Assembly: GCA_963377175.1 (NCBI GenBank) | Contig: CAUJNA010000473.1 | Location: 1-64,000 of the forward strand | DNA from: Effrenium voratum | Taxonomy: Eukaryota > Sar > Dinophyceae > Suessiales > Symbiodiniaceae | DNA length: 64,000 bases | Reading direction: 5' to 3' | Part shown: piece by piece, positions 640 through 22,310 of the stretch | Layout: the number at the start of each line of letters is the position of its first letter | Numbering within the stretch: position 1 is the first letter of the stretch | Made by a program: the position numbers and the translations under genes | Notes under the pieces: generated by a model | The model's database searches: none | What the model was told of the DNA's origin: nothing | What the model saw: only the letters and a program-made list of their open reading frames with translations

Positions 640-1032
640 GGGTCCTGGGCCTCGAAGGCTCCAGGAAGTCGTCCAGCTGCCTCACAGCCGCCGGCCTGCC
701 CCGTCTCGTCAGCCGGCCCGCCGCGTTGCCGCTGCCCTGCGGCGCCGGCAGCGCCAGCTTCCTCCGTGCTGCGGACGGTCATGGAGTCCACGGCCCCCAG
801 CTGCTGCACGTCGTCGTACTGAGGGTTGGAGCTCCTCGCCGCGTTCGTCGGCGCTCGGAAGGCGCCCGCGTCCTCCACCGCCTTCACGCGCCGGTCGGTG
901 AGGTCCTTGTTGCGCTGGAACTTGTCGGCGTTGTCTTGGAGGACCCTGAACTCCGTGGCCGGCTGCTTCTCCACGTCCTCGGGCGCGCCGTGCACCGTCT
1001 CGTGGGGCCGCGCGTTGTAGGCCCTGGCCGCC
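640..1032 (-). pseudogene. retroviral/Polinton-type integrase, C-terminal fragment
   Basis: Read on the minus strand, the frame contains YNARPHETVHGAPEDV, followed about 40 residues later by GAFRAP and NPQYDDVQ. A Y-N-x-x-x-H-x-x-(I/V)-x-x-x-P motif just before a small beta-barrel end is how rve-type integrases of LTR elements and Polintons close after the catalytic core. The DDE catalytic core is absent: homology stops near 1032, where a polymerase-like gene begins on the opposite strand, so the junction is a rearrangement. If it belongs to the viral element next to it, it would be the enzyme that inserted the element into host DNA. An origin from an unrelated LTR element cannot be excluded. 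Confidence 0.55.
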
Positions 1033-1051
1033 CGCTCGAAGCCTGAATCTG

Positions 1052-2713
1052 TTGCCGTACGTGGGGCCCGGCTGGTACCCGCTGGCCGCGATGCTGGACC
1101 TGGGCGTCTGCCGCTGGGACCACATTGTGTTGGGCGTCTCCGCGCGGAGCCACGTGGACGCGGCGACGCTGCGGCGCGCGCTGGAGCGCATGGACGCCGC
1201 GTGGCAGGGCGAGGAGCACATGGCCAAGCTCAGCGTGAACGCGATGATAGGCCTGTGGGCGCGCAGCATGGAGGTGGTCTACAGCGTGCGCAGCAGCAGC
1301 AGCGAGCTGGACGGCGCGGGCGCGGACTTCTCTCAGGCCTTCGCCTACGAGGGGGGCATGGTGTGGGACTTCGTCTACGCCAGGAGGCTGCTGAGCAACG
1401 GCATCTACCGCCCCATCCACGACGCGGTCCTGGGCTTCGAGCACTGCATGGTGGCCAAGGCCCGGCGCATCCTGGACGCGCCGCCGCGGTACCTCGCGCA
1501 GGTGAAGACGGACTGCCTGCTGACGCAGCGGCTGCCGAAGCGCTTCACGGAGCGGCTGCGGGCGCTGGAGGCGCTGCGCCACCCGGACGGCACGCCGGTC
1601 TACCGCGTGGAAGAGACGAAGCCGTTGCTGGGTAGCAGGGGAGGCGGAGCGCCCCAAACAACGGAGGTGGAACGGGGTGGACGGGGCCACTGCCTGGCGG
1701 GCAACTCCCTGCTGCTCACGGGCCTGCCGGGCACCGGAAAGACGCACCTGGCCCGGACCATTGTGGCGAGGCTGCGAGAGCAGGGCGAGGCGGTGCGCCT
1801 GGTGTCCAAGACGCACTGCTCCGCGCAGAACCTGGGCCTGGGGGCGCAGACGGCCGACCACTGGGTGCGCAGGTACGTGCGCGGGGGCAGCGCGCAAAAG
1901 CTGGACTGGTTGGTGGTGGAGGAGATCACGCAGCTGGACATGGCGCTCTGGGCGGACCTGGCCTGCGTGGGGCTGAACGCCGACGTGAAGTTCCTGCTGC
2001 TGGGAGACTTCCGGCAGTTGCCGGCCGTGCTGGACTGGGCCGGGCGGCCCATCAGCGCGCCGTTGGAGCACAGCCAACTCATCCGCGACCTGGCCGGCGG
2101 GCACAGGCGCGAGCTCACGGAGAACATGCGCTCCGACCCCGGCATCTTCGACTTCGTGAAGTGGCTGCGGGTCGGCGAGGAGGCGTGCCCCACGCTGGAG
2201 CAGGCCAAGGCGAGGCTGAGGGAGCTCTACCCCTCCAAGCCCGGGTGGCCGGACACCACGCTGGTCATCAGCCACAGCAAGCGCATGGCTGTCAACGCAG
2301 CGGCGAACCGGGCCCTGGCGCCGGAGGCCTCAAAGCTGCTCCAATTGGAGACACAAGTCATCCACATAGATTTGGGTGAGACCCAAAATGGCAAACACAG
2401 AACAGCCCGCAGAGCATGAGGGTGGCCGGGGCTGCGCCTCATCGGGGCCGGCGGGAAGATACCCAAGGGCGTCTTTGTGGCCGTGGCGGAAGTGGAGCCG
2501 GACGGAGTGAGGCTGGACAACGGCATGCGGCTGAAGAACCAGGAGCTGCTGCGGGCCACCCGGCCGAGCCACGCAGTGACCTACGCCAGCTGCCAGGGCC
2601 TCACCCTCCACAACCGCATCCGCCTGGACCTGGAGTCCTGCCACCTCACGCTGCGCCACCTGTACGTGGGCGCCTCGCGGGCCACGAGCTCCGAGCTGCT
2701 GGAGGCGGCCTAG
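1052..2713 (+). pseudogene. polymerase-like domain fused to SF1 helicase
   Basis: The first ~195 codons look like a family B polymerase palm/thumb: AKLSVNAMIG resembles motif B (K-x3-N-x3-G), and YLAQVKTDCLL lies where motif C (DTDS) would be, with TD-C in its place. The same frame continues into a helicase of the Pif1/RecD type: GLPGTGKTH (Walker A, ~2 o'clock of the fold), WLVVEE (Walker B), LLGDFRQLP (motif III), then ENMRSD. A frameshift and short inserted stretch near 2340-2430 break it; the 3' part (2430-2713) in another frame carries SHAVTYASCQGLTL and YVGASRA, the usual helicase motifs V and VI. No start is visible because the gene begins at the junction near 1040. A replicative role in copy A is inferred. 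Confidence 0.7.
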
Positions 2714-2775
2714 AACGGGCAGCACGGCGCCTCCAGGGGCTCCAGCATGAGGTGGCGCACCTCGAAGAGCACGCC

Positions 2776-3240
2776 CTACTGCCTGCCCATCAGCCACACG
2801 TGCCGGGCCTCCACAAGCGCGCGGCCCCTGCGGCGCGCGAACTCCGCGGGGCGCGGCACGCGGTTGCCGGCCGGGTCCCAGAAGAGGCAGCGCTCCAAGT
2901 CCATCTTGCACTTCACGTGCTTGCCCTTGGCGCTCACCTTGACGGCGCGCTGCAGCTGGCTCTCAAGCTCGGTGCGGGCGGCCCCCGGAAAGGGCTTCTG
3001 GAAGATGATCATGTTGTCGATGACGCCCTGCTCCACCTCCTCCGTCCACAGCTCCAGGTTGGTGTTGCTCGCAAAGCACACGCCCACCCTCTTGGCCCCG
3101 TCGTCCTGGAAGTTGCCGGGCCCCCACAGCACCTCCACGTCCACCTTGCACACCAGCGCGCCCTGATGGGAGTCCTCTATGGACATGAACTTTCCCCCCT
3201 TGGCATTGGTCTGAACGTCCAGCCCGAGTGCAAGCTTCAT
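2776..3240 (-). CDS. conserved viral protein with NAKGGKF motif
   Basis: An uninterrupted 154-codon frame starts at ATG 3240. I do not recognise the family with certainty. It opens with NAKGGKF, is rich in alternating hydrophobic residues (KVDVEVLWGPGNF, RVGVCFASN), and ends basic (ARRRGRALVEARH). A second, broken copy lies at 13850-14182 in the same position, upstream of the C5 methyltransferase and divergent from it by about 100 bp, so it is a stable member of the element. The fold pattern and small size would suit an OB-fold single-strand DNA-binding protein, but that is a guess. It is one of the few undamaged genes of copy A. Confidence 0.6.
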   Translation of the reverse strand: MKLALGLDVQTNAKGGKFMSIEDSHQGALVCKVDVEVLWGPGNFQDDGAKRVGVCFASNTNLELWTEEVEQGVIDNMIIFQKPFPGAARTELESQLQRAVKVSAKGKHVKCKMDLERCLFWDPAGNRVPRPAEFARRRGRALVEARHVWLMGRQ

Positions 3241-3339
3241 TGCGAAGTTCGGCTTTTTATCTCGCGGAGAAAAAATCCGGTCCGACGAACGTGCGAGTTT
3301 TCTTGGTCGTCGCAGTGGCGGTGATCTTGCTCTTTAAAA

Positions 3340-3980
3340 ATGCCGAGACTCCTGGAGCTTTTCTGTGGCACCAAGTCGGTGGGCAGGGCCTTCGAGGCGG
3401 CGGGCTGGGAGGTCGTCTCCCTGGACATCGTGTCGAAATTTGAGCCCACCATCCTGTGCGACATCCGGAGCTGGGACTACACTACGTTTCCGGGGCACTT
3501 CGACATGGTTTGGGCCCCGTCTGCACGGAATACAGCCGCGCGCTGACGACGCGCCCGCGGCGGCTCCTGGAGGGCGACGCGCTGCCCAGCGCCCTTTGAG
3601 ATCATTGCGCACTTTGACCCCTTGATGTGGGTCATAGAGAACCCGGCCACCGGGCTGCTGAAGACCCGGCCGTTCATGGAGCGTCTGCCCTGGGACGTGA
3701 CCTACTGCAAGTACGGAACTCCGTACAGGAAGCAGACGCGGCTGTGGACCAACATGCGCTGGAGGCCGAGGCGAGGCCTGCGCAGGCCTGGCAGCCGCTG
3801 CGAGGCGTGGCAGGACGGCAGGCAATTGCGGGCCGCGCAGGGCCGCGGCTGATGGAGGGGCAGTACGAGAGGGTCAGCCAATCACGCGAGCTGCTCTACA
3901 GCGTTCCTGCTGCGCTGCGCGAGGAGATTGCGCGCGCGGCCACGGAGGAGCTTGCGGAGCGGCTGAGCATTCCGGACTAG
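3340..3980 (+). pseudogene. cytosine-C5 DNA methyltransferase, copy A
   Basis: The gene starts at ATG 3340 with LLELFCGTKSVGRAF, the AdoMet-binding motif I of C5 methyltransferases, followed by VVSLDI (motif II). Near 3515 a small deletion shifts the frame just where the catalytic Pro-Cys is expected; CTEYSR is still readable in the shifted frame. [11 protein letters not shown] (motif VI, the ENV/ENP loop) follows in a third frame from about 3594, then [17 protein letters not shown]. The C-terminus (LYSVPAALREEI...) is in a further frame to 3980. The enzyme would methylate cytosine in viral or host DNA. It is divergent from the NAKGGKF gene and convergent with MCP. At least three frame breaks make it non-functional as read. 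Confidence 0.85.
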
Positions 3981-4043
3981 GTGGCTTCCTCCAAGGGGCC
4001 TGGAACAAGTCCATTTTTCCATGTTTTTGCATGTTTTTTTTGC

Positions 4044-4243: not shown

Positions 4244-4253
4244 GGGCCTTTTT

Positions 4254-5169
4254 TTAGTCAAGCACAGAGACGCCCGTGCCGGAGAGCGTCACCAGCTGGT
4301 AGGCCACCAGGTGGATGAACAGGTCCGTCATCGTGCCGTCCAGGCCCTTGAAGGTGAACCGGGCAAGGTCGCCCGAGCGGGTGCTGACGCCACTCAGCGG
4401 CATCTTGGGCACGCGCTCGGTGGGAAAGCCGGCAATGAAGCTGTGGCGCAGGCAGCCCACGCGGCCGATGTCGATGTTGCGCACCGTGTCGTCGTAGGTG
4501 CCCGCGAGGACGGAGAGGAAGTGGAAGTGCTCCGAGGCTCCCTTCATGGGGTTGTGAGGGTACTGCAGGCTGCCCAGCTGCATCTGAGACTCCAGGAGGC
4601 TGTCCTCCTGCCTGGCCGCGCTGATGGGGGCCACGTCCTGCCCCGGGTTGGCCAGCAAGTGGATCTTGGAGCCCGCGTCGTTGTCCCAAAAGGTCACAAA
4701 CGCGCCCATGAGTTTCGTGAAGGCGCGCGCCACGGTGACGTTGTGCTCCGCCACGCCGTTCGGGACGCTGGACTGCTGCGTGTGCACCGTGGGGTAGCTG
4801 AACACCAGGGACCTTCCTGAGAGGAGCACCCGGTTGAAGGACTCTACCAGCGCAGAGTCCAGGACGACCTGGGAGGCCAGAACTCGGACGTTCTGGATTT
4901 CAAAGTCGGTGCTCAGCGTGGCCCCCGCCGGGTGCGCCCCGGCGTTCTCGGACCACAGCGCAGTCGTGGCGTCCGCAAACTCAATTTCTATCACCAGGTT
5001 CAGCTGCGGCGGCAGCATCTTCCCGCAGCGCAGGATGCCCACCATGGTGGGGCGCAGCAGCACGTCCGCGTAGCCGCCCTTAGTAGTTGATGTCGTCGCA
5101 GCGCTGGCCGTTGGCGAAGACCTGGACGCGCTGGACGAAGTTGCGGCTGTCCACATAGATAGTCGTCAT
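4254..5169 (-). pseudogene. major capsid protein (double jelly-roll), copy A
   Basis: About 275 C-terminal residues are open to the TAA at 4254. PQLNLVIEIEF, then VLDSALVESFNRVLLSG, then FTKLMGAFVTFW is the strand pattern I associate with double-jelly-roll capsid proteins of Polinton-like viruses and related algal viruses. Upstream, an ATG at 5169 opens MTTIYVDSRNF and the conserved NGQRCDDINY, which hits a stop before GGYADVLL: a stretch present in copy B (18301-18430) is deleted here. Copy B is about 94 percent identical over the last 180 residues, with many more silent than replacement differences. It would form the hexameric capsomers. It is the first gene of the minus-strand morphogenesis block. 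Confidence 0.8.
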
Positions 5170-5339
5170 CCTTTTTCTAAGGAAGCCGCCCGTTCTGCGG
5201 ATGACGGGCGGCTGGACGGCTGCGACGGAGGTGCAGCAGGAGATGTTCTCGCAACAGCTTCTGGCCCAGGAAGCTGAGCGCCGCTCCCATCGGCTTCTCT
5301 TCTTACAAGGGAGAACTCAGAACAGGAGACTCCAGAGAC

Positions 5340-6046
5340 ATTCTCATTCCGGTTTGCGGGGCTATGGGACCCATCTTTCACCTGTTTTCGCCTGTTCATA
5401 CACCAGGCGTTGTTCTTCAGGCGCTTCGAGCTCCTGCAACGATTCGCGTCCAGCTCGTGCTGGTTGCGCAGCCTCCGTTGCTAAGAGGAAATTGGTTGGA
5501 TCTGCACGGCTGCGCTGATGAGCCGCAGCTTCTGCGAGCTCACCCAGGTGCTTATCTGCATGTGCCGGCCCTGATGAAGAGAGTGTTCAGGGCGCCGTGA
5601 GGCTTGTGCAACTGCGGCGTGTCAGCAAAGTCGTCGATGACTACAAGCACCTGGTACAGTTTCTTCATTTCCAACTTCTTGGACGCCTCCGTGATCTTGC
5701 GCTGCTGCTGGATGATGCGCCGCAGCGCCGCCTCGTCCCACTCGTCCCAGTACGCTTGCTCCCGTTCGGTATTCACCCCCAGGTCCTCCTCGATGTACTT
5801 CTTGACGGGGATCCAGCCGTCATCGATGTCGATGGACGGGCTAAAGATGTAGATCCTTTCGAAGACGCCCCTGTACTGCTCCAGAATCAGGCTGATCAGA
5901 GTCACGGTTTTCCCCGATTTGGAAGGTCCGAGGAAGATACCTGTGCATGGGACCAGGGGCACCACGGGGTCCGAGGGCTGTTTGCTGCTGTATTCTGGCG
6001 TGGGGAAAAGCTTGATCTTTCCCACACCTTTGTTTTTACTTCCCAA
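5340..6046 (-). pseudogene. A32-type genome-packaging ATPase, copy A
   Basis: GIFLGPSKSGKTVTLISLIL is a P-loop of the FtsK/HerA (poxvirus A32-like) class, and VLVVIDDFAD is its Walker B. The frame shifts near 5556; the next frame gives STWVSSQKLRLISAA, and a later one LQELEAPEEQRLVYEQ, both matching the C-terminal order of the AT-rich ATPase at 27643-28407. The intact copy B starts MGKIKLFP; here the ATG has become GTG (KGVGKIKL), so even the start is lost. The enzyme pumps viral DNA into capsids. In full elements penton and pVI-like genes should sit between it and MCP; in copy A they are deleted. The 170 bp left of it (5170-5339) hold no recognisable gene. Confidence 0.85.
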
Positions 6047-6059
6047 ATTCGACGCAGGG

Positions 6060-6586
6060 AACCGGGCGGCGAGTCCGACAGCGCGCTGCTATACAGCAGG
6101 GCGCTGACGGAGTTTTCCGGGCAATCCGGGCGACAAGTCCGGGAGTGCGTCTCTGTGTAACGACGCTCTCACGGAGTTTTCCGCGCAATCGCAGCGAGTC
6201 TGGGAGTGCAGCGCTGTACAGCACTGCGCTTCCAGCGTTTTCTGGGAGACACCGGGGCAATCCTGTGCCCGCGCCAGGATTGACGGCTGGGCGTGTGAAT
6301 GGTGAAAAAAACACTCCGCCAGTGGCACCCGCGAGGACCGCCTCGCTGACAGACCTCCGGCGCTGGCCCGGTGATGGGTTTTTCGGGCAAAATACCGAAG
6401 TCGGAATTCCGACCTCGGTGTAGAGCGAAGTCGGAATTCCGCCCTCGGTGTGGTGCGGCCGGGGAGGCTTCTATGCCGGGCAGGTGGCGCGGCCGGGGTG
6501 TCCACGAGATCAGACGATGATCCTCCACGCTGTGCTGGGAACCTTGCATTTGTGACATTGGTGCCACCAATGTCAAGGAAACGAGG
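6060..6586. other. non-coding spacer with near-palindromes
   Basis: No gene is seen. The stretch contains repeated half-sites of GAGTTTTCCG(G/C)GCAATC (6111-6190), and an almost perfect palindrome around GTCGGAATTCCGAC (6400-6425) that is repeated in part at 6428-6450. The same palindrome family lies at 7722-7765 and 22310-22362 next to both Dam genes, so it belongs to the element rather than to the host. Confidence 0.5.
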
Positions 6587-6716: not shown

Positions 6717-6775
6717 CCACTCAACCACTTTCACAGTGGCCCACAACGCCTGCGCCTGCTTGGCGCTGTCCTACG

Positions 6776-6999: not shown

Positions 7000-7541
7000 T
7001 CACAACTCACGCCCGCTGGGACACTGACGCAATCTGGAGCAGCTGCGGATGCTGGGCGCAGCTGAGCCCTTCGACCAGCTCTAATGAAATCCGCCGCAGC
7101 TGCAAAAGATGGGCGCCGGGCCGCATGCTCACACGTTCTGTGCGCAACAGCTTCTCGGGAAAGTGGGGCTCCTTCACACAGCAGCGGCCGCTGGGGCTGA
7201 GCGGCGTGCGCGTGTGCAGCGGCCACCGCGCAATGTGACCGTGCGATGCCAGGACGCACTGGCCTATCTACGCGCTCTGCCCCGCCAGGCACCCCGACAA
7301 GCCATATATGCCGACCCACCCTACATCTTCCCACACCGCAGCACGAACCACGGTGGCACGAGAGGCGGGGGCATGACCTGGCCTCCACTCGGAGCTCCGA
7401 GACGCGCTCTTCGCAAGCGGCCTGCCCTTCGTCCTGAGCATAAACGACGTGCCTGAGGCCTGGGAGCTCGGGCCGGCTCCACCACGAGGCTGTGCTCGGG
7501 CAAGAACGGCTCCAAGCCCGAGCTGCTGGTAGTGCACAGGG
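7000..7541 (+). pseudogene. Dam-type (D12 class) adenine-N6 methyltransferase, copy A
   Basis: The catalytic motif is intact as ADPPYIF (about 7310-7330). Just upstream VRNSFSGKWGSF, in another frame, and NVTVRCQDALAYLR match copy B. Downstream, in a third frame, GLPFVLSINDVPEAWEL matches the region where Dam enzymes have their FVLSYND-like strand, and SGKNGSKPELLVV closes the protein. The N-terminal AdoMet-binding part present in copy B is missing or unreadable, and a tandem hairpin repeat abuts the gene. Role: adenine methylation of viral DNA, often paired with or protecting from a nuclease; no nuclease gene is seen here. At least two frameshifts. Confidence 0.8.
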
Positions 7542-7716
7542 CAATCCTGCTGTGAGCGCAGGAAGGGGTGGAGCAATCCTGCGCCCACAGCAGGATTGAA
7601 GCTGCAATCCTGTGCAGCAGGATTGCCAGCCCGCACCAGGCCCGCACCAGGCCCGCACCAGGCCCGCACCAGGCCCGCGCCAGGCCCGCACCAGGCCCGC
7701 ACCAGGCCCAACGGCC
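7542..7716. repeat. inverted CAATCCTGC repeats and CCCGCACCAGG tandem repeat
   Basis: CAATCCTGC and GCAGGATTG alternate as inverted repeats (7543-7628), followed by about nine copies of an 11-bp unit CCCGCACCAGG. The same two blocks, in the same order, follow Dam copy B at 22150-22310, so they are part of the element. Confidence 0.85.
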
Positions 7717-8092: not shown

Positions 8093-8111
8093 TCCGTTGA
8101 TTTGGCTCAAG
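8093..8111 (+). other. degenerate dinoflagellate spliced-leader relic
   Basis: TCCGT, a short altered middle, then TTTGGCTCAAG. The conserved dinoflagellate spliced leader ends in ATTTTGGCTCAAG and begins (D)CCGTAG. An 11-base 3' match plus the matching 5' end is unlikely by chance in 64 kb. It overlaps the stop region of the S74 fibre frame on the other strand. Confidence 0.5.
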
Positions 8112-9060
8112 ATGGCCAGATGAGGTGCACTGCGGTGCTCAGGCGTTCGGAGGCGAAGCCCAGCCTCAGGTCCTCATTCATGTCCGGGCGCTTGTGCTGC
8201 TTGGCCTCCACGGAGTTGCACAGCTGGTGGAGCTCTGCCACGTCGGCCTCGGCCATCTCCGTCTTCACCCTGCTGTCCGACAAATTCGTGAAGCTCGTGT
8301 TGCAGACCACGTTGCCCGTGTTGCCTGCGATCACGAGGCAGCCGGGGTTCAAGGACATCTGCGTCGAGAGGGTCTTCGTCTGTATCAGCGCCTCGTTGTT
8401 GATCATGATGAGCTCGCACTGGTGCGTCCCACCGTCCCGCTCCAGGAAGACCCTGGCGCTCTGATTGCCCACAGCCGCAGCTCCGGGCCGCTGTCGGAGG
8501 CCGCGCTGTTGTTGGAAATCTCAGCTTGCTCCAATCCGCCCAGTTCTTCGTCAGGAAGAGATCGTCCGAGAAGTCGGAGGTGTTTGGTCACGATGAGCGT
8601 GTTGGAGTCACGACCACGCTGCCCGTCGACTCCGCCGCTCGTGCCGTGAAGGTGCAGTCCAGGCTCTTGCAGTCCAGCGGGCCCGGAGCCTTGCGCCGAG
8701 GCCCAGCGTGCCCGTAGACACGTCGCCCACCATGGTGAAGTTCCCGGCGTTGGCCGTGTTGTTGATGAGCGTGCTGCCCGTGATTCCGGTGGCTGAGCTC
8801 AGCAGGCCCACGCTGGCCGCCTGGTGATGCTCAGCGACTGCCGACACCCGAACGGCCCCTGTAAACGACAGCGTGGCTCCGGCGACGGTGCCAGTGGCTG
8901 TGAGCGCTGCGCAGGAAACGGCCCGAGGCGTCACGCCCGTTGTGAACACGCCCGTGCAGTTCACGTCGTTGCACAGCAGCTTAGGTCCGTCACGAATGCA
9001 ATGCGTGCAGCAGGCTTCTGGAGAAGCCCGCCGCGTGGGTGGCCTTGCGGCTGCTTGATG
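8107..9060 (-). pseudogene. fibre protein with S74 intramolecular-chaperone end
   Basis: The last ~120 residues (8472-8107) are one open frame with NLSDSRVKTEM, the SD-x-R-x-K signature at the start of Peptidase_S74 chaperone domains, then RLGFASE where these domains carry their second conserved block. This C-terminal piece trimerises phage and virus fibres and cuts itself off at the Ser-Asp. Upstream, in other frames, TGSTLINNTANAGNF and VSTGTLG are low-complexity Thr/Asn/Gly beta-repeats typical of fibre shafts. The shaft is broken by several frameshifts and its start cannot be placed. It would be the host-recognition spike of the capsid. Only copy A retains it. Confidence 0.7.
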
Positions 9061-9639
9061 GCTCATACGCAAGCGGCCTTGCGAGGACGCGCTGCTCGAG
9101 GCCGAGCGCTCCAGCGGCATATATCGCGCAGCTCGATAAAACCCTGCGCTGCAAGGAGCGGGAGCTGGATGCTGGAGCGCAAGAAAGTACCTTGGCAAAC
9201 CCGGCAAGCGAGCGGAGGCGGGAGCGTTGCGGAGCCGGCCACGCGCTCCCTGCGCTGGTTTAGGATTATGAGACATGGGCGGAAAGTGGGACGCGTGGGA
9301 CGCGGTCTTTTTTCGGGGCCCGTCCAAGCCCCGCTCCGACCCGACGTGAAGTCAGTGAGTGGCGGGCCACCTGCGTGGCAAGCTTCACGGCTTGTCGGAT
9401 TGCCGAGGCAACGTGGCTGAGCTCCAGCAGCTCTTCGGCTCCGTGGGCCCAGCAGTACAAGGCCCGGACAATGGGAACCTGAGGCTGACGACTTTGCAGA
9501 AACAAAGTGGAAGAATTTGACGGGGAGTGTTGCAGACCACGTTGTGTTGCCCCTCTAGAGGGCGTTTCCCAAATGGATTCTGTTCTACCTGGCTCGCACT
9601 CGTCCGTCCACATTGACCTCGTGCGAAGAATTTGAAGTC
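9061..9639. other. no clear gene; decayed minus-strand coding traces
   Basis: Short open minus-strand stretches (for example HNVVCNT near 9540 and AEELLELSHVASAIRQ near 9420) faintly resemble the S74 region (NVVCNT, ADVAELHQL), as if a second, older fibre end lay here. It is too broken to call. Confidence 0.3.
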
Positions 9640-12600
9640 TAAAAACGCTGCGTGCAGGCGTGTGGCTGCAAAATAATGACTCTTAGGGTCCTTGGACTTG
9701 CCGGCCACGTCGAAGAGGGTGGCGCTCAGGTGCCTCGGCCATGGCGTGGAGCGGGTCCGCAGCACCATCACGGAGTCGGTGTCCGTGGCCTTCGTGGAGA
9801 CGCTCAAGACGGACCGCAGCAAGGCCTGCATGAGCGTCCCACACAAGTCGGCGCCCGCACGCTGCAGCTCTCCAAGCTCATGATGGGAAGGCCTACTACG
9901 GGTCCACTAGGCGTTCGTGTTCCTGAACTTGTCGGGGTTCATGCAGCAGGCCGAAGATGGCGTTCTGGGTGAGCTTACGCACGAGACGTGGTTTTCGGGG
10001 CTGAGCTGGGAGTCGACTCCGAGGAAGTGAGCTTGGACTACGACTCCCCGAGCTGCGTGACCACTTGGACTGGGCTCCCCCCGCGCGCATGAAGGTTGGG
10101 AAGGGCCTGTACGGGCGCACACCGCGGACATGGCAGAGCGCCTCGGCCTCTCCCCGTCGCTCTGCGAGAAGCTCGTGCCCTTTCTCGGCATGCGCGTAGA
10201 GGAGGCGTGGACGGCAAGCGGCTCAAGTTCCTGCGGGACGTGCTGGGCGCAGGGTCTGGAAGCTGCGCAGGGCCTACCGCTTCGCCTCCCTTCATGGCGG
10301 CTTCATGGAGCTCAAGCACAGCGAGCGGAGGCAGCTCAAGACGGCGGGGAGCGTGGTCGCGAGAAGGTTTTCTTCTGGCAGGACCGTCACGCAGGGGCCG
10401 TTGGGCATGGGCAGCGTCATTGCGGCCGGGTACATGGCCTTGAAGTCCAAGTGCGAGATCCAGCTGACGGGCTCCTCGGTTGTAGTCCTCCTCGCCAGCT
10501 CGTTGTTGGCTTGAGCGAAGGGCTGGAAGATGCAGCTCAGCCCACCCATGACGGAGGACCGCACATCCTTGTTGGCCTGCTCGTCGGTGATGGGTGAATG
10601 GGAGTCTCGCGATCCGAGTGCCGCAGCATGCGTCCCAGGCGGCCCGTAGTGGATGGGGTCGAGCCCCGACTGCGCCCGGAAGGAGTCCCTGTAGCTCTCC
10701 ATCACGTCCGCCAGGCCAGGACGTCGGTGTGGAGGTAGCAGTCGTGGAACTCGCGGCCCATGAGATAGGCGGTGTTGACGGCCAGCCGGTGGTCCTCTGC
10801 GCTCACCGCTTTTCCTGCCAGCACGCTGTCGTAGCAGTGCTGCTCCCCACCGCACGCATCTCCCACGCCTCGGCGCCGCAGAAGTGCTCGAAGGGCATGG
10901 GCAGCTTGCGCAGGATGCAGTCCCACGCCTGCTCCAGGTCGCAGTGCGTCCGCCGCTGTTTGAGAGGCCGTCTTTGGGGCGGAGAGTCGGTCGGCGTGCT
11001 GCAGCTCGGGGTGAAGCGAGGCCATCAGCGGGAAGAGCTCCGGCAGCTGCTTGTGGGTGCAGGCCCTGAGGTCGTCGATCATGCTGGCCAGGCTCGTGGG
11101 GAAGACGTTCATGCTGTCCACGAACCTCAGCGGGCTCCAGCCCATCTGCAGACACTTCTCGCCCGACTTGCAGAGGACTCGGAGGCAGAGGTGGCTGTAG
11201 TCGCGGCTGGAGGGCGCACCAGCCGGTGAGGGGCCTTGGCGCGGCCTTGGCCCTGCCCTTGGGTGCGGCCTTTGGCGCAGCCTTGGCCATGGGCATGGGC
11301 CTCTCGGACTCGCTGCCGCTTCCTTCTGCCTCGCTCTCGGTGCCCTCGTTGTCGCTGTCCTCGCCGAGCTCTTCGCGCGGTGCCCTGCTGACAGGAGAGC
11401 CCATCGTGGCGATGTAGCGCAGCAGGAAGTGGAAGTCATAGCCGCCCCCGTTGTGAAAGACCACTGGGATGGTCTTGGGCGTCTGGGCCGCGATGTTGCA
11501 GCCCGAGATACTGCCCGGTGCCGTGGCAGTGGTGGAGCTTCTTCTCAGCGGTCTCGAAGGACGCGAGGCACTCCCTGCAGTGAGTGGCGGCCCTGTGCTC
11601 CAGCTCCTCCCTCCGGGTCATGCTGACGGGCCGAGTTCGGCGTCTCCAGGTGAGGTAGTGGTCGGCCAGCTTGAGCAGGTCGTTCAGCATGGTGCGGACG
11701 GCGTGGTACTTGTCGCTGTCCCGCTCGTGGTGCGTGAGCCTCAGCCTCAGCTCCTCGGGTGGCACGTAGCCGCAGCGCCCGACGGCGACGTAGCTGGAAG
11801 AAGCCGCGACGGTCTGGCGCGCCGGCTGCTGCTGCGCTACGTGGACCGTCGGGGCGGGCGTGCTGTAGACCTCGAGGTCCGCGTAGCACGTCAGGGGCGC
11901 GAGCTCTGCGGAGGCCTTGCCCCTGTAGCGCAGCAGGCTCTTCTCGGGCCCGGGCAGCGGCGCTTTCCGAGTGCGCTCGGCTATCTCTCGATAGCGCTGG
12001 GAGGCGCGGTGGCGCTGCCACGAGGCCTTCTTGGCGAAGCGGGCCATGCACCTCGGGCACTTGTACTCCATGCAGCCGCCGGTGTTGGTCCCAGGGTCAG
12101 CCCCTGCCTGCCGGCCAGCGCCTGGAAGTTGTGGATCAGGCTGTAGTCGCTGTGCAGGAGAAGCAGCACGGTGTGCTGGACGACGCCCGTGCCGCTCGGG
12201 GCGCGCTGCTGGAGGACGTGGTAGCACTCCAGCCCGTCCGCCCACAGGGTTTGCTGCCACACGAGGACGAAGACCTCCACCCGCCCGGCGTTGCGGAGCT
12301 CGAAGGCCTATGTCGTCGGCGGTCCGTCGGCAGGCCAGAGAAGTCCACCCCCGCGTCGGCCAGAGCGGGCTGCCAGCCCGGGGGGCGCGGTCCTCGGCGG
12401 CTCGGGGTAGAAGAAGGAGCCCGAGCAGCTTGTGGCCTTTGACCGCTGCCACCAGGTGAGCCCTGAGCAGTGGGCGAGGACGCACCACATGAAGCAGCGG
12501 TGGTCCTCGTTCTGAGGGTTCCAGGGTCTCGGGCAGCTCCTTCCAGCAGCCTCCCGCCTCGTTGGGCGGCGGGGGCGCGGGCATGTCGGCCAGCTGCGAG

Positions 12601-13062
12601 GGCGCGGTCAGCAAATACGCCGCCGTACGGTCCAGTCGGACTTGGGGAAGCGGGAGCGCTCGAGCGCGACCTCGAACTTCGTCCTGATGGCCGCCATCAT
12701 GGTTCCGGCGCGGGCCGACGGAGGCGCGGGCCTCACGATCCACGGCGCCAGCCTGAGGAAGTAGAGCGTGAGCTCCACCCTGTCCTCGTCCTCATCGTTC
12801 GCAGCTGGGCGCGCTGACCTTGGCGAGGAAGGGCAGCCGAATTGCCAGCAGGTCTTGGAGCCGGTCCACCAGCAGCCGCATGGCATCGATGGTGAAGACC
12901 TGCTGCGCGCAGCCGCAGCTCGTGGGTCCAAGCAGCCCCGCGCGGGTGCAGTTCTGTCACGGCGGCCTCGGCGCTAGGAGCGCGCGGCTCCTCCAGAGGC
13001 ACCGCCCGGACGGCGCTGAGCCCCAGGCGGCCCCAGATGCGATCGGACAGCTCGGAGGTCAT
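9640..13062 (-). pseudogene. protein-primed family B DNA polymerase
   Basis: Starting at ATG 13062, frames in succession give ENEDHRCFMWCVLAH-like and DFSGLPTD blocks of Polinton-type polymerases, HTVLLLLHSDYSLIHNF, and a zinc finger (CPRCMARFAKK...). Then come CYADLEVY (Exo I, D-x-E), a second zinc-binding stretch (CRECLASFE), FHNGGGYDFHFLL (Exo II), DSMNVFPTSLASM (Exo III area), LADVMESYRDSF, HLDFKAMYPA (motif A), KLTQNAIFG (motif B, near 9965) and TDTDSVMV (motif C, near 9790). Homology fades at LFDVAGKSKD near 9650. The part between motifs A and B lies inverted at 9987-10352. Many frameshifts. This enzyme replicates linear viral or Polinton DNA using a terminal protein; it defines the element's class. 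Confidence 0.88.
9987..10352 (+). other. inverted internal segment of the PolB gene
   Basis: On the plus strand, against the direction of the surrounding polymerase, frames read VFGAELGVDSEEVSLDYDSP, then ELRDHLDWAPPARMKV, then SPSLCEKLVPFLGM, and finally FASLHGGFME. In Polinton-type polymerases the equivalent order (EVDLEYP, LHD..PL.PE, KL...L, F.Q..FM) lies exactly between motif A and motif B. Motif A on the minus strand ends at about 10360 and motif B begins at about 9985, so the block is in place but flipped. Confidence 0.65.
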
Positions 13063-13186: not shown

Positions 13187-13771
13187 CTACCGCGTCACAG
13201 CGAGTCGGTGGCGCTGCCCTGCAGGTTCAGCGCAGCGAGGAGCTCTCTGGAGGCCTCGTCCAGCGGCGAGGGTTGCGCTCTTGGCAGCCAGCGAGACCGG
13301 CAGCCGCTCAGCGATCTTCTTGCTGACGGGCTGCTTGTCCACCTCGAAGAGCTCCCTCTCGATCTGGGCCAGCGTTGCGACATCGCGCGTGCGAATGCGG
13401 CGCTGCCTCAGGGCCTCGCGCTTCTCGCGGAGCGCTTCCATCGGCGCCCAGCTCTCCTCCCCGCGCTCGGCCATGGCGGGAGCTGCGCTGCGAGCCGCGC
13501 GCTGGTTCAAGCGCTTGCGAAGCTTAAGCTGCAGGTCTTGCGCCCGCTTCAGCATCTCCTTCCAGTCCTGGATGTCGACCTCCTCCGCCGGGAACCTGCC
13601 GGCGAGCCCGTCAGCTATCAGCCGCTCCAGCACGGGCGCTCCCCGAGCGAGCTCGTTGCGCAGGCGGCTCACCTCCTCCAGAGAGGCTCCCCGCTTCAGC
13701 GCCTCGGCATCAACGGCGGCCTTCAGCACAGGCCTCAGCTGCTCGCGGCGCTCCAGGACGTGGGTGGCCAT
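13187..13771 (-). CDS. coiled-coil protein of the viral element
   Basis: ATG 13771 opens about 180 residues dominated by charged helix: LERREQLRPVLKAAVDAEAL, ASLEEVSRLRNELAR, DWKEMLKRAQDLQLKLRKR and LREKREALRQRRIRTR. A one-base slip near 13270 then moves the natural end into another frame (ASRELLAALNLQGSATDSL, stop near 13195). It lies between the polymerase, 125 bp away on the same strand, and the NAKGGKF gene. I do not recognise the family. Candidates are a terminal protein for protein-primed replication, which would suit its place beside PolB, or a structural coiled coil; neither can be shown. Copy A lacks it. Confidence 0.55.
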   Translation of the reverse strand: MATHVLERREQLRPVLKAAVDAEALKRGASLEEVSRLRNELARGAPVLERLIADGLAGRFPAEEVDIQDWKEMLKRAQDLQLKLRKRLNQRAARSAAPAMAERGEESWAPMEALREKREALRQRRIRTRDVATLAQIERELFEVDKQPVSKKIAERLPVSLAAKSATLAAGRGLQRAPRCAEPAGQRHRLAVTR

Positions 13772-13849
13772 TCTGAATTTTTTTAATGAGCAAAAAAAAG
13801 GCTGCGGCATCGGAAGAAACAACACTCTCGAGAAGGTGGCTCCACGCGC

Positions 13850-14182
13850 AGATCTGTGACCTCAAGACTCAACCCGCACATGCCGCTCATCAGCCACAAG
13901 CTGCGCGCTCTCAGCCTAACGCGCGCGGCGCAGTGAGCCAGCTCAGCGGGGCGGTCCGCACACGTGCCGCTGGCGTTCCAGAAGCGCGCGTGGGCCGGCA
14001 GCTTGGCTTTCAGCATCCAGCTGCTCGACCAGATCGGTCTCGGCCCGCTCCCAGAAGAGCCTCGCGCGCTCGTCGGGCTCCCAGGGGATTTGCAGCGAAG
14101 CTTCGCTCTGCCAAAACAGAGGCTCCATGCACAAGAATTTGCCACCCTTAGCATTGGAGCGCACCTCGCCCAACTTCCACAT
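13850..14182 (-). pseudogene. NAKGGKF viral protein, copy B
   Basis: ATG 14182 opens MWKLGEVRSNAKGGKF, matching the start of the 2776-3240 gene; the middle (ERARLFWERAETDLVEQL) is shorter and more acidic, and the end (ALLERQRHVCGP, then LVADERH-like) is readable only across a frameshift. The reduced middle suggests an internal deletion. It is divergent from the C5 methyltransferase, as in copy A. Confidence 0.55.
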
Positions 14183-14304
14183 GCTAGCCTGGCTCGTCAT
14201 CCTTTTCTGTCTCCGATTAAAAAAGATTGGTCCGAGCATGCGAAACTGCTTGAGCCGCGCCCTTGCCTGTGCGTGCTTTGTTGTGCTGGTGGTAATTGTT
14301 AAAC

Positions 14305-14807
14305 ATGCCGAGACTGCTGGAGCTGTTTTGCGGCACAAAGTCGATTGGCCGAGCCTTCGAGGCGGCAGGGTGGGAGGTCGTCTCCCTGGACATCGTGTCG
14401 AAATTTGAGCCCACGATCCTGTGCGACATCCGGAGCTGGGACTCCGCCGGGGCACTTTGACATGGATAGAGAATCCGGCCACCGGGCTGCTGAAGACCCC
14501 GTTCATGGAGCGCCTACCCTGGGTGGACGTTACCTACTGCAAGTACGGGACTCCGTACAGGAAGCAGACCCGGCTGTGGACCAACATGCGCTGGAGGCCG
14601 AGCCGAGGGCTGTGCAGGAGCGGCAGCCGGTGCGACGCGTGGGAAGACGGGAGGGCGCTCAAGGGGGGCCTCGACTCATGGGGGGCCAGCGCGAGAGGGT
14701 CAGGGGGCAGTCGCGCGAGCTGCTTTACAGCATTCCTGCGGCGCTGTGCGAGGAGATTGCGAGCGGCCACGGCAGAGCTTGCGGATCGGCTGAGCATCCC
14801 GGACTGA
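14305..14807 (+). pseudogene. cytosine-C5 DNA methyltransferase, copy B
   Basis: The first 45 codons (LLELFCGTKSIGRAF... to IRSWD) differ from copy A by one residue, although many bases differ. After GHFDM about 130 bp are deleted, removing the catalytic PPC loop; the text resumes at [10 protein letters not shown] (motif VI) and [17 protein letters not shown]. The C-terminus again ends LYSIPAALCEEI...LSIPD in a shifted frame. The enzyme cannot be active without the catalytic cysteine. Confidence 0.85.
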
Positions 14808-17460: not shown

Positions 17461-17480
17461 TGCCTGCAAAAATGATCCGC

Positions 17481-17553: not shown

Positions 17554-17556
17554 TTA

Positions 17557-18704
17557 CTAGTCAAGCACGGAGACTCCTGTGCCAGAGAGCGTCACCAGCT
17601 GATAGGCTATCAGGTGGATGAACACATCCGTCATCGTGCCGTTGAGCGCCTTGGAAGTGAACCGAGCCAGGTCGCCCGAACGAGTGCTGACGCCGCTGAG
17701 GGGCATCTTGGGCACTCGCTCTGTCGGGAAGCCCGCGATGAAGCTGTGGCGCAGGTAGCCAGCGCGGTCGATGTCGATGTTGCGCACCGTGTCGTCGTAG
17801 GTCCCCGCAAGGACCGAGAGGAAGTGGAAGTGCTCCGAGGCTCCCTTCATAGGGTTGTGCGGGTACTGCAGGCTGCCCAGCTGCATCTGCGACTCCAGGA
17901 GACTGTCTTCCTGCCTGGCCGCTCCGATGGGGGCCACGTCCTGCCCCGGGTTGGCCAGCAGGTGGATCTTAGAGCCCGCGTCGTTGTCCCAAAAAGTCAC
18001 GAACGCTCCCATGAGTTTCGTGAAGGCGCGCGCCACGGTGACGTTGTGCTCCGCCACGCCCGGAGGCACCGTGGACTGCTGCGTGTGCACCGTGGGGTAG
18101 CTGAACACAAGCGACCTTCCTGAGAGGAGCGCGCGGTTGAAGGACTCTACCAGCGCTGAGTCCAGGACTACCTGTGAGGCCAGAACTCGGACGTTCTGGA
18201 TCTCGAAGTCGGTGCTCAGCGTGGCTCCCGGGCGTTCTCAGACCACAGCGCAGTCGTCGCGTCGTTCACCTGCGGCGGCAGGTGGGGCGCAGCAGCACGT
18301 CCGCGTAGCCGCTCTGGTGCACCGCTCGGGGCGTCCGAGAGTTGTTCACCTCGTCGAAGCCCTCCACGGCCTTGTTCTGGTTGTACTCGCGGCCCTTCAG
18401 CAGGTCATGCACGGCCACGGTGCGGCCGTAGTAGTTAATGTCGTCGCAGCGCTGGCCGTTGGCGAAGACCTGGATCGTCTGGATGAAATCGGAGTGGCAG
18501 GCGCCAGCGGGTTGGTGGCGTCCGTGTTTCTGACTCTGAAGGCGATCTTGATAGACTCGGGGTCGATGAACGAGGTGCCGCTGGTCAGCGGAATGCGGCA
18601 GACCCTCCGTGCCGTGCGGTCACGTAGTTGGTGTTGCTGGTTTTCAGCTTGTCGTCCAGGCTCTGCATCAACTCATCCTGTGCTCCGGCCGTGACTACCT
18701 CCAT
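17557..18704 (-). pseudogene. major capsid protein (double jelly-roll), copy B
   Basis: ATG 18704 opens MEVVTAGAQDELMQSLDDKL, followed by RVCRIPLTSGTSFIDPESI and, after a frameshift, FANGQRCDDINYYGRTVAV, YNQNKAVEGFDE and GYADVLLRP. A deletion removes the stretch corresponding to PQLNLVIEIEF in copy A. The final 183 residues are open and nearly identical to copy A, ending VLD at 17557. Together the two copies show the whole protein to be close to 400 residues, within the normal range for double-jelly-roll capsid proteins of small DNA viruses. Neither copy is intact. Confidence 0.82.
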
Positions 18705-18745
18705 GCTTCTTTACATGTATTTTCGTTTGTACGGCGAAGGAGAGT

Positions 18746-19814
18746 CTAGGCCGCCTCGATGTCTTGGGCCAGCTGGTCGTAGCTCGGCGGAGGCAGGCGG
18801 CTCTGACTGAGGCAGAGTCACTGGAAGGGGCGGGGCGTGTGATTGGTCTGCGCCTGGACTCTGAAGCCAGACTGTGAGGAGGCGGCTGCAGTTGTTGGCG
18901 GACCGGACGTCCTGCACGGCTGCGCCTCACTGCCCTGCTGAGGCCGGAAGAGTGTGTTCTCCAGCACCCAGCCCGCCAGGCCGTAGGCTGTGCCGCCTGC
19001 GAGTCCCACAGCCAACCCTGCCGTCGCCGCTGTGCCAACTCCTGCCGTGGCAGCCAGCGTTCCAGCAACCTCGCCCGCCGTGGGTGCGAGGGCTGCTGCT
19101 CCTTCTGCCAGGCCTCCCAGTACGCCCTCTGCGGCAACGGCAACCTCTCCCTCCTCCGCAGCCACTGCTGCCGTCTCCTCTATGGCCTGTGCTGCGCCGC
19201 GCTCCACCTCCTGCGCGCGCTGCCCCGCCTCGTCCGCGCTCTACGTCGTCGGGTCGGCCGATGATCTGCGGAGGTGGCTGCGGCTGCGGCCCTGGTCGGG
19301 GCAATACGTTCTGGCGGACGTACTCGGCAGCGTTCTGGGGGAGCTGGGAGCGGAAGGCCTGCGCCGCCGCGAGCCCTGCCGCTCCTGCGCCCACGAGGTC
19401 CGCTGCTGCCTGCGCTCCGTCGGCCGCGCTGCGCAAGCGGCCCGTGATGGAGGGCCCCTGGCCGTTGTTTGTCAGCGCGTCGGCCTCGGGGTCTCCAGCC
19501 AGGTCGTCCTCGACGAAGCGGGTTCCTCCGTAGCCCTGGTACATCCGGGCAAGTCGCACGTCCTCGTCCGTGGCCTCGGCGGGAGTGCGGAAGCCTTCCT
19601 CCGGAATCGCCCTCAAAGGAGTATGCTGCAGAGGCTGCGGGTTGGGGTCCTCGCTGGACTGCACGAAGTCGTCCAAGTAGAAGTGGCTCGTGATGAACGT
19701 GGTGGCCTTGCGGTCCGGCTGGTCCAGGGGCAGCGGCTCATTCCGCTCCAGGTAGCCCACAACCTGCTCGAAGCGCGGGCGCTGATTGAAGCCGTGGGAC
19801 CGAAGCGTCTTCAT
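18746..19814 (-). pseudogene. pVI-like minor virion protein with PPxY motif
   Basis: ATG 19814 opens MKTLRSHGFNQRPRFEQVVG; residues ~45-120 are acidic (HFYLDDFVQSSED, RMYQGYGGTRFVEDD). A frameshift near 19240 leads to a long Ala/Gly/Thr-rich hydrophobic part (GEVAGTLAATAGVGTAATAG) that could form membrane-active helices. In a further frame the end reads LPPPSYDQLAQDIEAA before stop 18746. A hydrophobic Gly/Ala stretch plus a PPSY motif recalls adenovirus protein VI, which disrupts membranes and binds Nedd4-type ligases; that comparison is analogy, not proven homology. It lies between MCP and penton in the morphogenesis block. A truncated copy is at 30511-30700. Confidence 0.55.
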
Positions 19815-19826
19815 CTCTTTTATCCG

Positions 19827-20012: not shown

Positions 20013-20030
20013 CTTGCTTTTTACACAAGG

Positions 20031-21260
20031 ACGCTTGCGCCCGCCGTCAGCCGGTCGTACGCCGACTGCCTCTCCAGCATGCGCATGGCGCGCTCGCTCG
20101 GCCGAGGCGCTTTTTCGGGCTCGGGCCGTACCTCGCTGTGTACCTCGGCCTCGGGCTCGGGCTGTGCCTCGGGCTGTACCTCGGGCTCTAGCTGTGGCTC
20201 AGCCTTGGGCGCTGCCTTGGGCTTGGGTGCTGCCTTGGGCTTGGGAGCTGGCGCGGCAACTGGCGGGCGCAGCCTTGCGTGCTGCCTTGGGTGCTGCCTT
20301 GGGCGCTGCCTTGGGTGCTGCCTTGGGCACGGGCGCTGCCTTGGGCGCAGTTGGGTGCTGCCTTGGGCGCTGCCTTGGCCACGGGTGCTGCCTTGGGTGC
20401 TGCCTTGGGCGCCGTCTTGGGCTTTGTGGGAAATCTCACCCTCTTGGGCCGGAAGGGGGAGTCCATTTCATATGCAGGCAGGTCAGGGATTTTTTTTTTG
20501 CTCTTCGGCAGGGGCAGCTCTGGCGGCTTGGGCTTGTTCTTACTACCCGGAGGTCTGCCTCTAGGCCTGGGGATTAGACGTGATCCAAAAACACGAAGGA
20601 CAAGGACGAGCCCCTCAGTCGGACAACTTGCCCTCCGGTCTGTCAGCCGGAAGCGCAGGTGTCTCAGGGTGATGGGGCCCCTAACGGCCATGAAGTGCCC
20701 GTCATCGGAGCCGGTCTCCAGTATGGTGCCCACGCCGCTCTTCAGCGTTATCTTGGACAGGATGTCGTCCCCCAGATTGCCCAACATGCGGCTGGCGTTG
20801 GCCAGCTGGGGGCAGCGCAGGTAGACTCGTTGTAGCAATTCATGCGTACGAACTCGAAGACCTGCTGTCCGCCGGAGACGAAGCTGGGGCCTAGCATGTG
20901 GTCGATGCTGAAGGGCTTGCTCGGAGAGGCGTCCGGTGAGGTGGGGTAGTCCAGCGTCTGGGAACTGCTGCTGCAGCTCCAGATCGTTCAGAATGAGCCG
21001 GTTGCCGTCGTAGGCTACGCTCAGGCTGTTCGTGGTAGGTGGCAGTGGCGAAGTTGGAGCTGATCCAGGCTGCCAGCCGGGAGCCCGTGTAGGCGCCTTC
21101 CGGAAGGAGCGCCCAATTCAGAGTCCCAAGCGCGGCGTCAAGCCAGTACAAGTAGCGGCCCCGGTCTGTCGAGAGGAAGCTGTCGGCGATTCTAATCTTG
21201 TAGACGGCCAGCCTGGCGTCGCTCTGCAGGTGCAGAGACTCTCCCAGGTCTACCTCAAAG
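20031..21260 (-). pseudogene. penton-like minor capsid protein with AT-hook and KAAP tail
   Basis: The N-terminal part (from about 21260) reads DFEVDLGESLHLQSDARLAVYKI and LLPEGAYTGSRLAAWISSNF; after a break come RCPQLANASRMLGN and GPITLRHLRFRLTDR. A single jelly-roll beginning with an ATTG-like strand, a G-x-Y-T loop and a closing strand before a RLTDR-type turn matches minor capsid (penton) proteins of Polintons and virophages. The same frame continues into GRPPGSKNKPK, an AT-hook core, then about ten KAAP repeats (20190-20430) like histone-H1-type tails. A frameshift in the repeats leads to SERAMRMLERQSAYDRL and stop 20031. The N-terminus is fused to the broken ATPase copy B. Confidence 0.6.
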
Positions 21261-21534
21261 TCGGCCTGTTCTTTCTCTGAGTTCACCCCAAGGTCCTGCT
21301 CGATGTACTTCTTGACGGGGATCCAGCCGTCGTCGATGTTGACGCTTGGGCTGAAGATGTAGATTTCTCGAAGACGCCTCGATACTGCTCCAGGATGAGG
21401 CTGATCAGCGCCACGGTTTTGCCGGACTTGCTGGGGCCGAGGAAAATGCCCGTGCGCGGCACCAGGGGCACCACGGGGTCCAAGGGCTGTTTACTGCCAT
21501 ACTCGGCCGTAGGAAACAGCTTGATCTTCCCCAT
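21258..21534 (-). pseudogene. A32-type packaging ATPase, copy B (truncated)
   Basis: ATG 21534 opens MGKIKLFPTAEY; GIFLGPSKSGKTVALISLIL (P-loop) follows. After a frameshift IFSPSVNIDDGWIPVKKYIE matches copy A up to GVNSEKEQA, where the text jumps directly into the penton-like gene. Walker B and everything after it are deleted. Start codon and the 65-bp divergent spacer to Dam (21535-21599) are intact and conserved with copy A (AAATTCGACGC). Confidence 0.85.
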
Positions 21535-21599
21535 TCACTCTTTTCAAATTCGACGCTGGGAAGCCGGGCAGTGAGACCGGGATAAATCTAAAGGCTGGC

Positions 21600-22145
21600 A
21601 TGCGGCTGAAGTACATGGGAAGCAAATCGTGGCTGGCTCCACACGTGGACCGGCTGCTGGGGGACGTCGCTGTGCTTCACTCTCCCTTCTTCGGCTCTGG
21701 AAAGCTGGAGTACTACCTCGCAACCCGGCGTCCGGCCCTGGAGGTGCGTGGTGTCGACGCCTTCGAGCCCGTCGCAAACCTGCACCGCTGCTACTTGAGG
21801 CAAGACCCGGTCTTCCTGCGCTCCTTGCTGCGCCTGGCGGGGCGCAAGGTAGACAGGCGCTTCTACTTCAGTCGCCTCCTGCCGGGCACAGAGAGGGCGC
21901 GCCGGGCGTCGGGCTGCCTGCTCGTACGTCCTGCTGCGCAACAGCTTCTCGGGCGGCGTCTGCAACGGCCGCCCACAAATGTGACCGTGCGATGCCAGGA
22001 CGCACTGGCCTATCTACGCGCTCTGCCCCGCCAGGCACCCCGACAGGCCATATATGCCGATCCTCCCGACATCTTCCCAGGCCGCTCCATCACGAGGCTG
22101 TGCTCGGGCAAGAACGGCTCCAAGCCCGAGCTGCTGGTAGTGCAC
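21600..22145 (+). pseudogene. Dam-type (D12 class) adenine-N6 methyltransferase, copy B
   Basis: ATG 21600 opens MRLKYMGSKSWLAPHVDRLLG; PFFGSGKLEYYL is the FxGxG AdoMet loop, RGVDAFEPVANLHRCY the second strand, all classic for D12-class enzymes. A frameshift near 21900 follows. The catalytic tetrapeptide reads DPPD instead of DPPY, and a deletion then joins it to LCSGKNGSKPELLVV, so the C-terminal half is missing. Taken with copy A, both ends of the protein are visible. It is divergent from the ATPase. Confidence 0.85.
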
Positions 22146-22310
22146 CGGGGCAATCCTGCTGTGAGCGCAGGAATGGGTGAGGCAATCCTGCGCCCACAGC
22201 AGGATTGAAGCTGCAATCCTGCGCTGACGACAGGATTGACAGAAAGGCAGCACCAGGCCCGCACCAGGCCCACACCAGGCCCGCACCACGCACCAGGCCC
22301 GAACCAGGCC
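22146..22310. repeat. inverted CAATCCTGC repeats and CCCGCACCAGG units
   Basis: Same block as after Dam copy A, with fewer and more degenerate CCCGCACCAGG units. Confidence 0.85.

What the first reader, a model, noticed from the sequence alone, without database searches (positions are those of the whole stretch)
640..22310. Two decayed genomes of an undescribed Polinton-like virus in a dinoflagellate
One region holds the full toolkit of a double-jelly-roll DNA virus: protein-primed PolB, integrase end, helicase, MCP, penton-like protein, pVI-like protein, A32-type ATPase and a fibre, plus two DNA methyltransferases. Both copies keep the same order around NAKGGKF, C5 methyltransferase, MCP, ATPase and Dam. 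I do not recognise a described virus with exactly this set; no search could be run.
Basis: partly seen in the sequence, partly recalled or inferred. Interest (0 to 1): 0.88.

Follow-up and report, generated by a model that had tools for sequence, protein, structure and literature searches.

The report
Decayed virus copies in alga genome
Two broken copies of a small DNA virus sit side by side in what is probably a dinoflagellate genome; they appear to belong to an already reported group of genome-inserted viruses, and the same genome holds many better preserved copies.

The parts
635..1040 (-). Copy A: C-terminal part (residues 190-329) of an rve integrase; on the opposite strand relative to MCP compared with loci C3060, C1645 and C3661
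   Evidence: 90% to L028:721-1707, PF00665 E 4.4e-8 there
1043..2707 (+). Copy A: 3' half (residues 621-1190) of the palm-like/SF1-helicase fusion
   Evidence: PF13604 E 7.1e-15; 89% to the open frame L028:4909-8478
2713..3333 (-). Copy A: NAKGGKF gene, SSB-like by eye only
   Evidence: 212 relatives; Pfam and PDB silent
3325..3977 (+). Copy A: C5 cytosine methyltransferase, frameshifted
   Evidence: 79% to L028:9086-9754, PF00145 E 5.6e-4 there, below cut-off
4257..5139 (-). Copy A: MCP, about 94 N-terminal codons of the 426-codon frame missing and a gap at about 128-151
   Evidence: 99% to MCP of L029 over residues 152-426; DJR fold of relative P0001
5134..5253 (-). Copy A: scrap of the penton-like gene (residues 44-83)
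   Evidence: tblastn 87.5%
5253..6256 (-). Copy A: A32-type packaging ATPase, broken
   Evidence: PF04665 E 0.002; tblastn with L025 ATPase E 1.6e-104
7127..7596 (+). Copy A: Dam-type methyltransferase, residues 114-271 only
   Evidence: tblastn E 1.1e-23
8107..9351 (-). Copy A: fibre remnant
   Evidence: blastn 72-87% to L001 fibre ORF; tblastx to the end of the L002 fibre
9600..12800 (-). Canonical pPolB remnant in several frames (zinc finger, exonuclease, palm motifs, DTDS); not found in ten sampled copies of the element
   Evidence: PF03175 E 5.9e-4; frames
13187..13861 (-). 224-codon frame between PolB and copy B, no family
   Evidence: Pfam 0 families; no match in ten loci
13813..14443 (-). 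Copy B: diverged SSB-like NAKGGKF gene
   Evidence: 40-46% to L028 SSB frame
14299..14749 (+). Copy B: C5 methyltransferase with an internal gap
   Evidence: 75-96% in pieces
17557..18707 (-). Copy B: MCP in several frames
   Evidence: 84-97% in pieces
18818..19826 (-).
   Evidence: 91% to L025:1830-2780 over 172 residues
20745..21265 (-). Copy B: penton-like gene, broken
   Evidence: 63-91% in pieces to L025:3655-4446
21263..21735 (-). Copy B: A32-type ATPase, broken
   Evidence: tblastn E 4.1e-40
21525..22208 (+). Copy B: Dam-type methyltransferase
   Evidence: PF02086 E 2.3e-6; tblastn over residues 1-271, 59%
26300..30000 (.). AT-rich (29% GC) fragment of a different PLV: C5 MTase piece 26317-26472 (-), A32 ATPase 27628-28401 (+), other frames
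30217..30712 (+). Inverted scrap of the pVI-like region of the GC-rich element
   Evidence: 88-91% to 19572-20018
37054..37822 (+). Fibre-like scrap
   Evidence: 74% to L001 fibre over 272 nt; frame

Best explanation
These are two inactivated genomic copies of a polinton-like virus of the kind published as the dinoflagellate ('Dino') group. The better preserved copies of the same genome suggest that it integrates with an rve integrase, replicates with a fusion of vOTU-like, HNH, palm-like and SF1-helicase parts plus an SSB-like protein, modifies DNA with a C5 and a Dam methyltransferase, and packages DNA with an A32 ATPase into a double-jelly-roll capsid with a fibre. Shown here: gene content and order, abundance, MCP fold, breaks in the window copies. 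Inferred: integration, protein-primed replication, methylation and virion formation. The canonical PolB at 9.6-12.8 kb comes from another polinton-type element or from a swapped replication module.
Against: Palm and vOTU rest on motifs; hhalign against one pPolB failed, the fusion model is poor (pLDDT 57, pTM 0.34), and the motif-A Asp stands in 20 of 32 rows (7 gaps, 5 other residues). The SSB role found no support. In C1017 a fusion fragment is reversed, and in C1080 and the window the integrase piece is reversed relative to MCP.
Confidence: 0.82

Rival explanations
1. The element carries both a canonical exonuclease-bearing pPolB and the palm-like/SF1-helicase fusion; the ten sampled loci lost pPolB or it lies beyond the stretches read.
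For: In the window PolB lies between copies A and B; PMC12721341 speaks of a P. glacialis polinton with a pPolB.
Against: Five PolB pieces gave no match in 20 stretches around ten MCPs nor in 6 kb more on each of two; the sixth piece matched only inverted-repeat pairs.
Confidence: 0.15
2. PolB and the 224-codon frame are copy B's own replication module: a variant of the element in which a canonical pPolB takes the place of integrase, P-loop ORF and fusion.
For: PolB and the 224-codon frame lie directly left of copy B's SSB, C5 and MCP, where the fusion lies in 9 of 10 loci; copy B is the more divergent one (MCP 90% against 98%) and its SSB is a different type (40-46%).
Against: One decayed example; an unrelated polinton inserted between the copies would look the same.
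Confidence: 0.3
3. The elements are by now transposon-like repeats that spread inside the genome without making virions.
For: 4,715 first-look candidates in one genome; no close MCP relative in the IMG/VR scans.
Against: 128 of 130 scored MCP frames have no stop inside; seven copies differ at 184 synonymous against 6 non-synonymous positions summed over 21 pairs, and five C5 copies have pN/pS 0.27. The MCP sets were picked for protein similarity, which biases these counts.
Confidence: 0.35

Closest known systems
'Dino' group of endogenous PLVs (Bellas et al. 2023, PMC10120064; sections 6 and 9 and passages read)
   Same: Dinoflagellate-type host, very many MCP copies (2,535 reported in Polarella glacialis), PLV genes around MCP
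   Different: Published by MCP clustering; the passages read give no gene-by-gene account with fusion, C5 and Dam. Sequences not compared
Dinoflagellate polintons of Polarella and Symbiodinium kawagutii cited in PMC12721341 (parts 1-4 of 7 and passages read; figures not held)
   Same: Endogenous MCP-bearing elements of dinoflagellates
   Different: A separate pPolB is reported for P. glacialis; here ten sampled copies have the fusion region and no matched pPolB
Tlr1-like helicases (pPolB-S1H fusions) of PLVs and transpovirons (PMC11071308, section 11 and passages read)
   Same: vOTU-like, palm-like, SF1-helicase order; first Asp of DTD replaced (KTD here)
   Different: HNH lies between vOTU-like and palm-like parts; the paper places homing endonucleases at the C-terminus of these helicases
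OmPLV of Oxyrrhis marina (PMC12721341)
   Same: Endogenous PLV of a dinoflagellate with MCP, A32 ATPase and a polymerase-helicase fusion
   Different: OmPLV has helicase before pPolB, tyrosine recombinase and about 25% GC; here helicase last, rve integrase and 62-64% GC. The AT-rich fragment (29% GC) resembles it in GC only
IMG/VR contig L002 (17.4 kb, 32% GC)
   Same: rve integrase, A32 ATPase, MCP (about 26%), S74 fibre; nearest found relative of the AT-rich ATPase
   Different: Canonical 1286-aa pPolB, GIY-YIG, hydrolase-like ORF; no methyltransferase among the nine ORFs scanned

Membership tests
Polinton-like viruses (Preplasmiviricota) | Double jelly-roll MCP | tested here: met
Polinton-like viruses (Preplasmiviricota) | A32-type packaging ATPase | tested here: met
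   PF04665 E 3.9e-9 in L025; 0.002 in the window copy
Polinton-like viruses (Preplasmiviricota) | Integrase (rve or tyrosine recombinase) | tested here: met
   PF00665 E 4.4e-8 in L028; remnant in the window; found in 4 of 10 loci
Polinton-like viruses (Preplasmiviricota) | Jelly-roll penton protein | not tested
   Conserved gene in 7 of 10 loci; no Pfam; not folded, structure jobs spent
'Dino' MCP group (Bellas 2023) | MCP clusters with dinoflagellate endogenous MCPs | not testable with these tools
   Their sequences are not held; indirect support from Symbiodinium-named helicase relatives
Maverick/Polinton proper | Canonical pPolB with exonuclease in the same element | tested here: inconclusive
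   PolB remnant in the window, no match in ten other loci; genome-wide test not run
Tlr1-like pPolB-S1H fusion | SF1 helicase at the C-terminus | tested here: met
   PF13604, Pif1/RecD2 matches, order in L028 frame
Tlr1-like pPolB-S1H fusion | pPolB palm domain upstream of the helicase | tested here: inconclusive
   Motifs A/B/C with KTD 32 of 32 but motif-A Asp 20 of 32; hhalign not significant; no palm match in the listed PDB rows
Tlr1-like pPolB-S1H fusion | vOTU domain before the palm | tested here: inconclusive
   Cys and His motifs at 277 and 355 by eye; Pfam silent on that stretch
OmPLV type | SF1 helicase N-terminal to a full pPolB in one protein | tested here: not met
   Helicase is C-terminal in the single open frame L028:4909-8478

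The most novel reading that the evidence does not exclude
Related dinoflagellate PLVs share one capsid module but swap replication modules: a vOTU/HNH/palm/SF1-helicase fusion without exonuclease in most copies, a canonical exonuclease-bearing pPolB in others, in a genome that also hosts an AT-rich PLV with a related C5 methyltransferase. This would be a record, within one genome, of the polinton-to-PLV replacement so far inferred from distant relatives.
Probability: 0.25. Interest if true: 0.68.

Novelty: new variant of a known kind. Interest (0 to 1): 0.45.

Why it matters
The group is known mainly from MCP counts; here its gene order is read from several copies of one genome. It pairs a polymerase-like helicase fusion that lacks an exonuclease with two DNA methyltransferases, in a host type with unusual chromatin and DNA modification. 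If replication modules are exchanged within one genome, the trade-off between exonuclease and helicase proposed for these viruses (PMC11071308) becomes testable on close relatives. Many open copies also make it testable whether these elements still form particles.

Tried and rejected
Rejected: one region equals one virus. Put in doubt: 'undescribed virus'. Led nowhere: IMG/VR scans with the MCP, the MCP alignment, the copy-A ATPase, the fusion alignment and P0311 gave no relative; the PolB of L002 found only its own contig again, L003. The phage collection gave no match to fusion or MCP. SSB role: no Pfam, PDB or hhalign support; it rests on a recalled sequence pattern. Palm: hhalign not significant; fusion model weak. 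The best BFVD match of that model, H6WBE3, spans 826 columns but is unnamed and TM-scores are low (0.26/0.23); a paper search for the accession found nothing; I recall, unverified, that it may be a transpoviron protein. The P-loop ORF beside the fusion (I called it SF3-like in my notes) found nothing convincing in Pfam or PDB. Exonuclease, PolB, vOTU and methyltransferase motif names are recalled.

Biases: the ten loci come from the first 17 rows, chosen for contig room, so they resemble copy A. The pN/pS 0.011 of seven MCP copies is biased because they were the best protein matches; against copy A it is 0.167 and against copy B 0.083. One search compared MCPs on mixed strands and is replaced; its C5 value (0.271, five copies with equal open frames) stands. 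One search used lengths that I copied from the 120 listed rows of each (of 441, 212 and 306 hits); lengths over 150 kb were dropped.
Full report
What is there. The first 22.3 kb of the window hold two collinear, broken copies of one GC-rich element (64% and 62%). blastn of 1-13900 against 13901-24000 recovers C5 methyltransferase, MCP, ATPase and Dam in the same order. Proteins read from other copies in the same genome place the breaks. In copy A the integrase tail (635-1040) abuts residue 621 of a fusion protein (1043-2707); about 94 N-terminal codons of the MCP frame, the pVI-like gene and most of the penton-like gene are gone; Dam starts at residue 114. Copy B has a diverged SSB-like gene, a C5 gene with an internal gap, an MCP in several frames and a Dam that matches over its length. 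As they stand both copies look inactive.

The genome. The window is contig C473:1-64000 of an assembly of 1,155,904,702 bases in 3,699 contigs. The MCP query had 4,715 first-look candidates; 130 were scored (the window's own among them), all at E<1e-173, and 128 have no stop inside. Pairwise DNA identity of seven of them is 98.1-99.8%; copy A is 97.6-98.5% and copy B 90.3-90.8% identical to them. So copy A is a close member of the abundant family and copy B an older or divergent one.

Anatomy from ten loci. Twenty stretches around ten of these MCPs were searched with pieces of the window genes. SSB-C5-MCP is present in 10 of 10; the fusion in convergent orientation beside SSB in 9 (in C1017 a fragment is reversed); pVI-like in 9; penton-like in 7; ATPase in 7; integrase in 4 (in C1080 a small reversed piece); Dam in 3; fibre in 3. 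A P-loop ORF of 555, 831 or 645 codons lies beside the fusion in 3 (C1645, C3008, C3060). In C3060 the integrase (329 codons), P-loop ORF (645), fusion (1,190), C5 (223) and MCP (426) are all open. Shared contig lengths in an independent protein collection link MCP, SSB and helicase.

The fusion. The 1,190-codon frame shows in order LCVPRQL (277) and FDGHCY (355), which I read as vOTU Cys and His; an HNH motif (482); GVDVVRCR (570), KLSVNA (686) and KTDCL (779), which I read as PolB motifs A, B and C; Walker A (857); and the helicase end (1178). Pfam supports HNH in six of seven relatives (E 1.8e-4 to 0.01, three above the cut-off) and the helicase; the PDB search of the model gives Pif1 and RecD2. 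Palm and vOTU have motif support only: the profile comparison with a pPolB failed, the model is poor there, and the motif-A Asp stands in 20 of 32 rows, against 32 of 32 for the Asp of KTD. PMC11071308 (section 11 and passages) describes TP-vOTU-palm-S1H fusions in PLVs whose first Asp of DTD is changed; KTD fits that, so I favour a Tlr1-like fusion with HNH in an unusual place.

The PolB. Frames at about 9.6-12.8 kb carry a zinc finger, exonuclease and palm motifs including DTDS (motif names recalled), PF03175 E 5.9e-4 and a tblastx match to the pPolB of L002 (E 1.7e-6). Five PolB pieces matched none of the ten loci; the sixth matched only inverted-repeat pairs. PolB and the neighbouring 224-codon frame lie beside copy B's SSB, where the fusion lies in other loci. 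That permits a swapped replication module, but one decayed example cannot separate this from an unrelated insertion, and the genome-wide test did not complete.

The AT-rich neighbour. 26.3-30.0 kb has 29% GC. It encodes an A32-type ATPase 40% identical to copy A's and 39-69% identical in pieces to that of L002, and a C5 methyltransferase N-terminus 47% identical to the GC-rich one. This is a different PLV. Its GC resembles the about 25% reported for OmPLV (PMC12721341); membership was not tested.

Literature. Bellas 2023 (sections 6 and 9 and passages) reports 2,535 MCPs in Polarella glacialis and a Dino MCP group. PMC12721341 (parts 1-4 of 7 and passages) describes OmPLV and refers to dinoflagellate polintons. 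PMC11071213 (passages) reports Maverick elements enriched at dinoTAD borders and in 5-hmU in Breviolum. In the searches I saw no gene-level account of a dinoflagellate element with this fusion plus C5 and Dam; figures and supplements were not seen, most hits only as listings, and PMC11426020 and PMC5499653 are not held.

How it works, most likely. Integration by the rve integrase; replication by the fusion with the SSB-like protein, probably protein-primed; methylation by C5 and Dam, perhaps for protection or to match host DNA; packaging by A32 into a DJR capsid with fibre. The C5 gene looks under purifying selection (pN/pS 0.27 over five equal-length open copies). The functional steps are inferred from families.

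Verdict. A real and mostly correctly read endogenous PLV, very probably of an already reported group, with a replication fusion and a mosaic neighbourhood worth following up.

Noticed in passing
window 26300-30000: AT-rich (29% GC) fragment of a different PLV with A32 ATPase frames, a C5 methyltransferase piece and other AT-rich ORFs; nearest found relative IMG/VR contig L002.
   Followed up: partly
window 53711-54132 (+): Another C5-methyltransferase-like stretch (47% and 38% in two pieces), away from the PLV copies.
   Followed up: no
window 32377-34704 (-): Frames that look like a copia-type retrotransposon (by eye).
   Followed up: no
window 15560-17440: Long array of 60-66-base tandem repeats between C5 and MCP of copy B.
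   Followed up: no
L001: A 4.9-kb contig filed as an alphaproteobacterial MAG encodes an MCP 86% identical to this family and a fibre ORF of over 1,000 codons; probably eukaryotic or viral DNA binned with bacteria.
   Followed up: partly
L016, L018, L020, L022, L023, L031: Pairs of inverted repeats that match the 9.5-9.7 kb stretch of the window, recurring near the element in six stretches.
   Followed up: no
L028:2947-4881 (-), L017:6524-8188 (+), L024:5003-7495 (-): P-loop ORF of 555-831 codons beside the fusion in 3 of 10 loci, without a convincing family; not found in the window by tblastn.
   Followed up: partly
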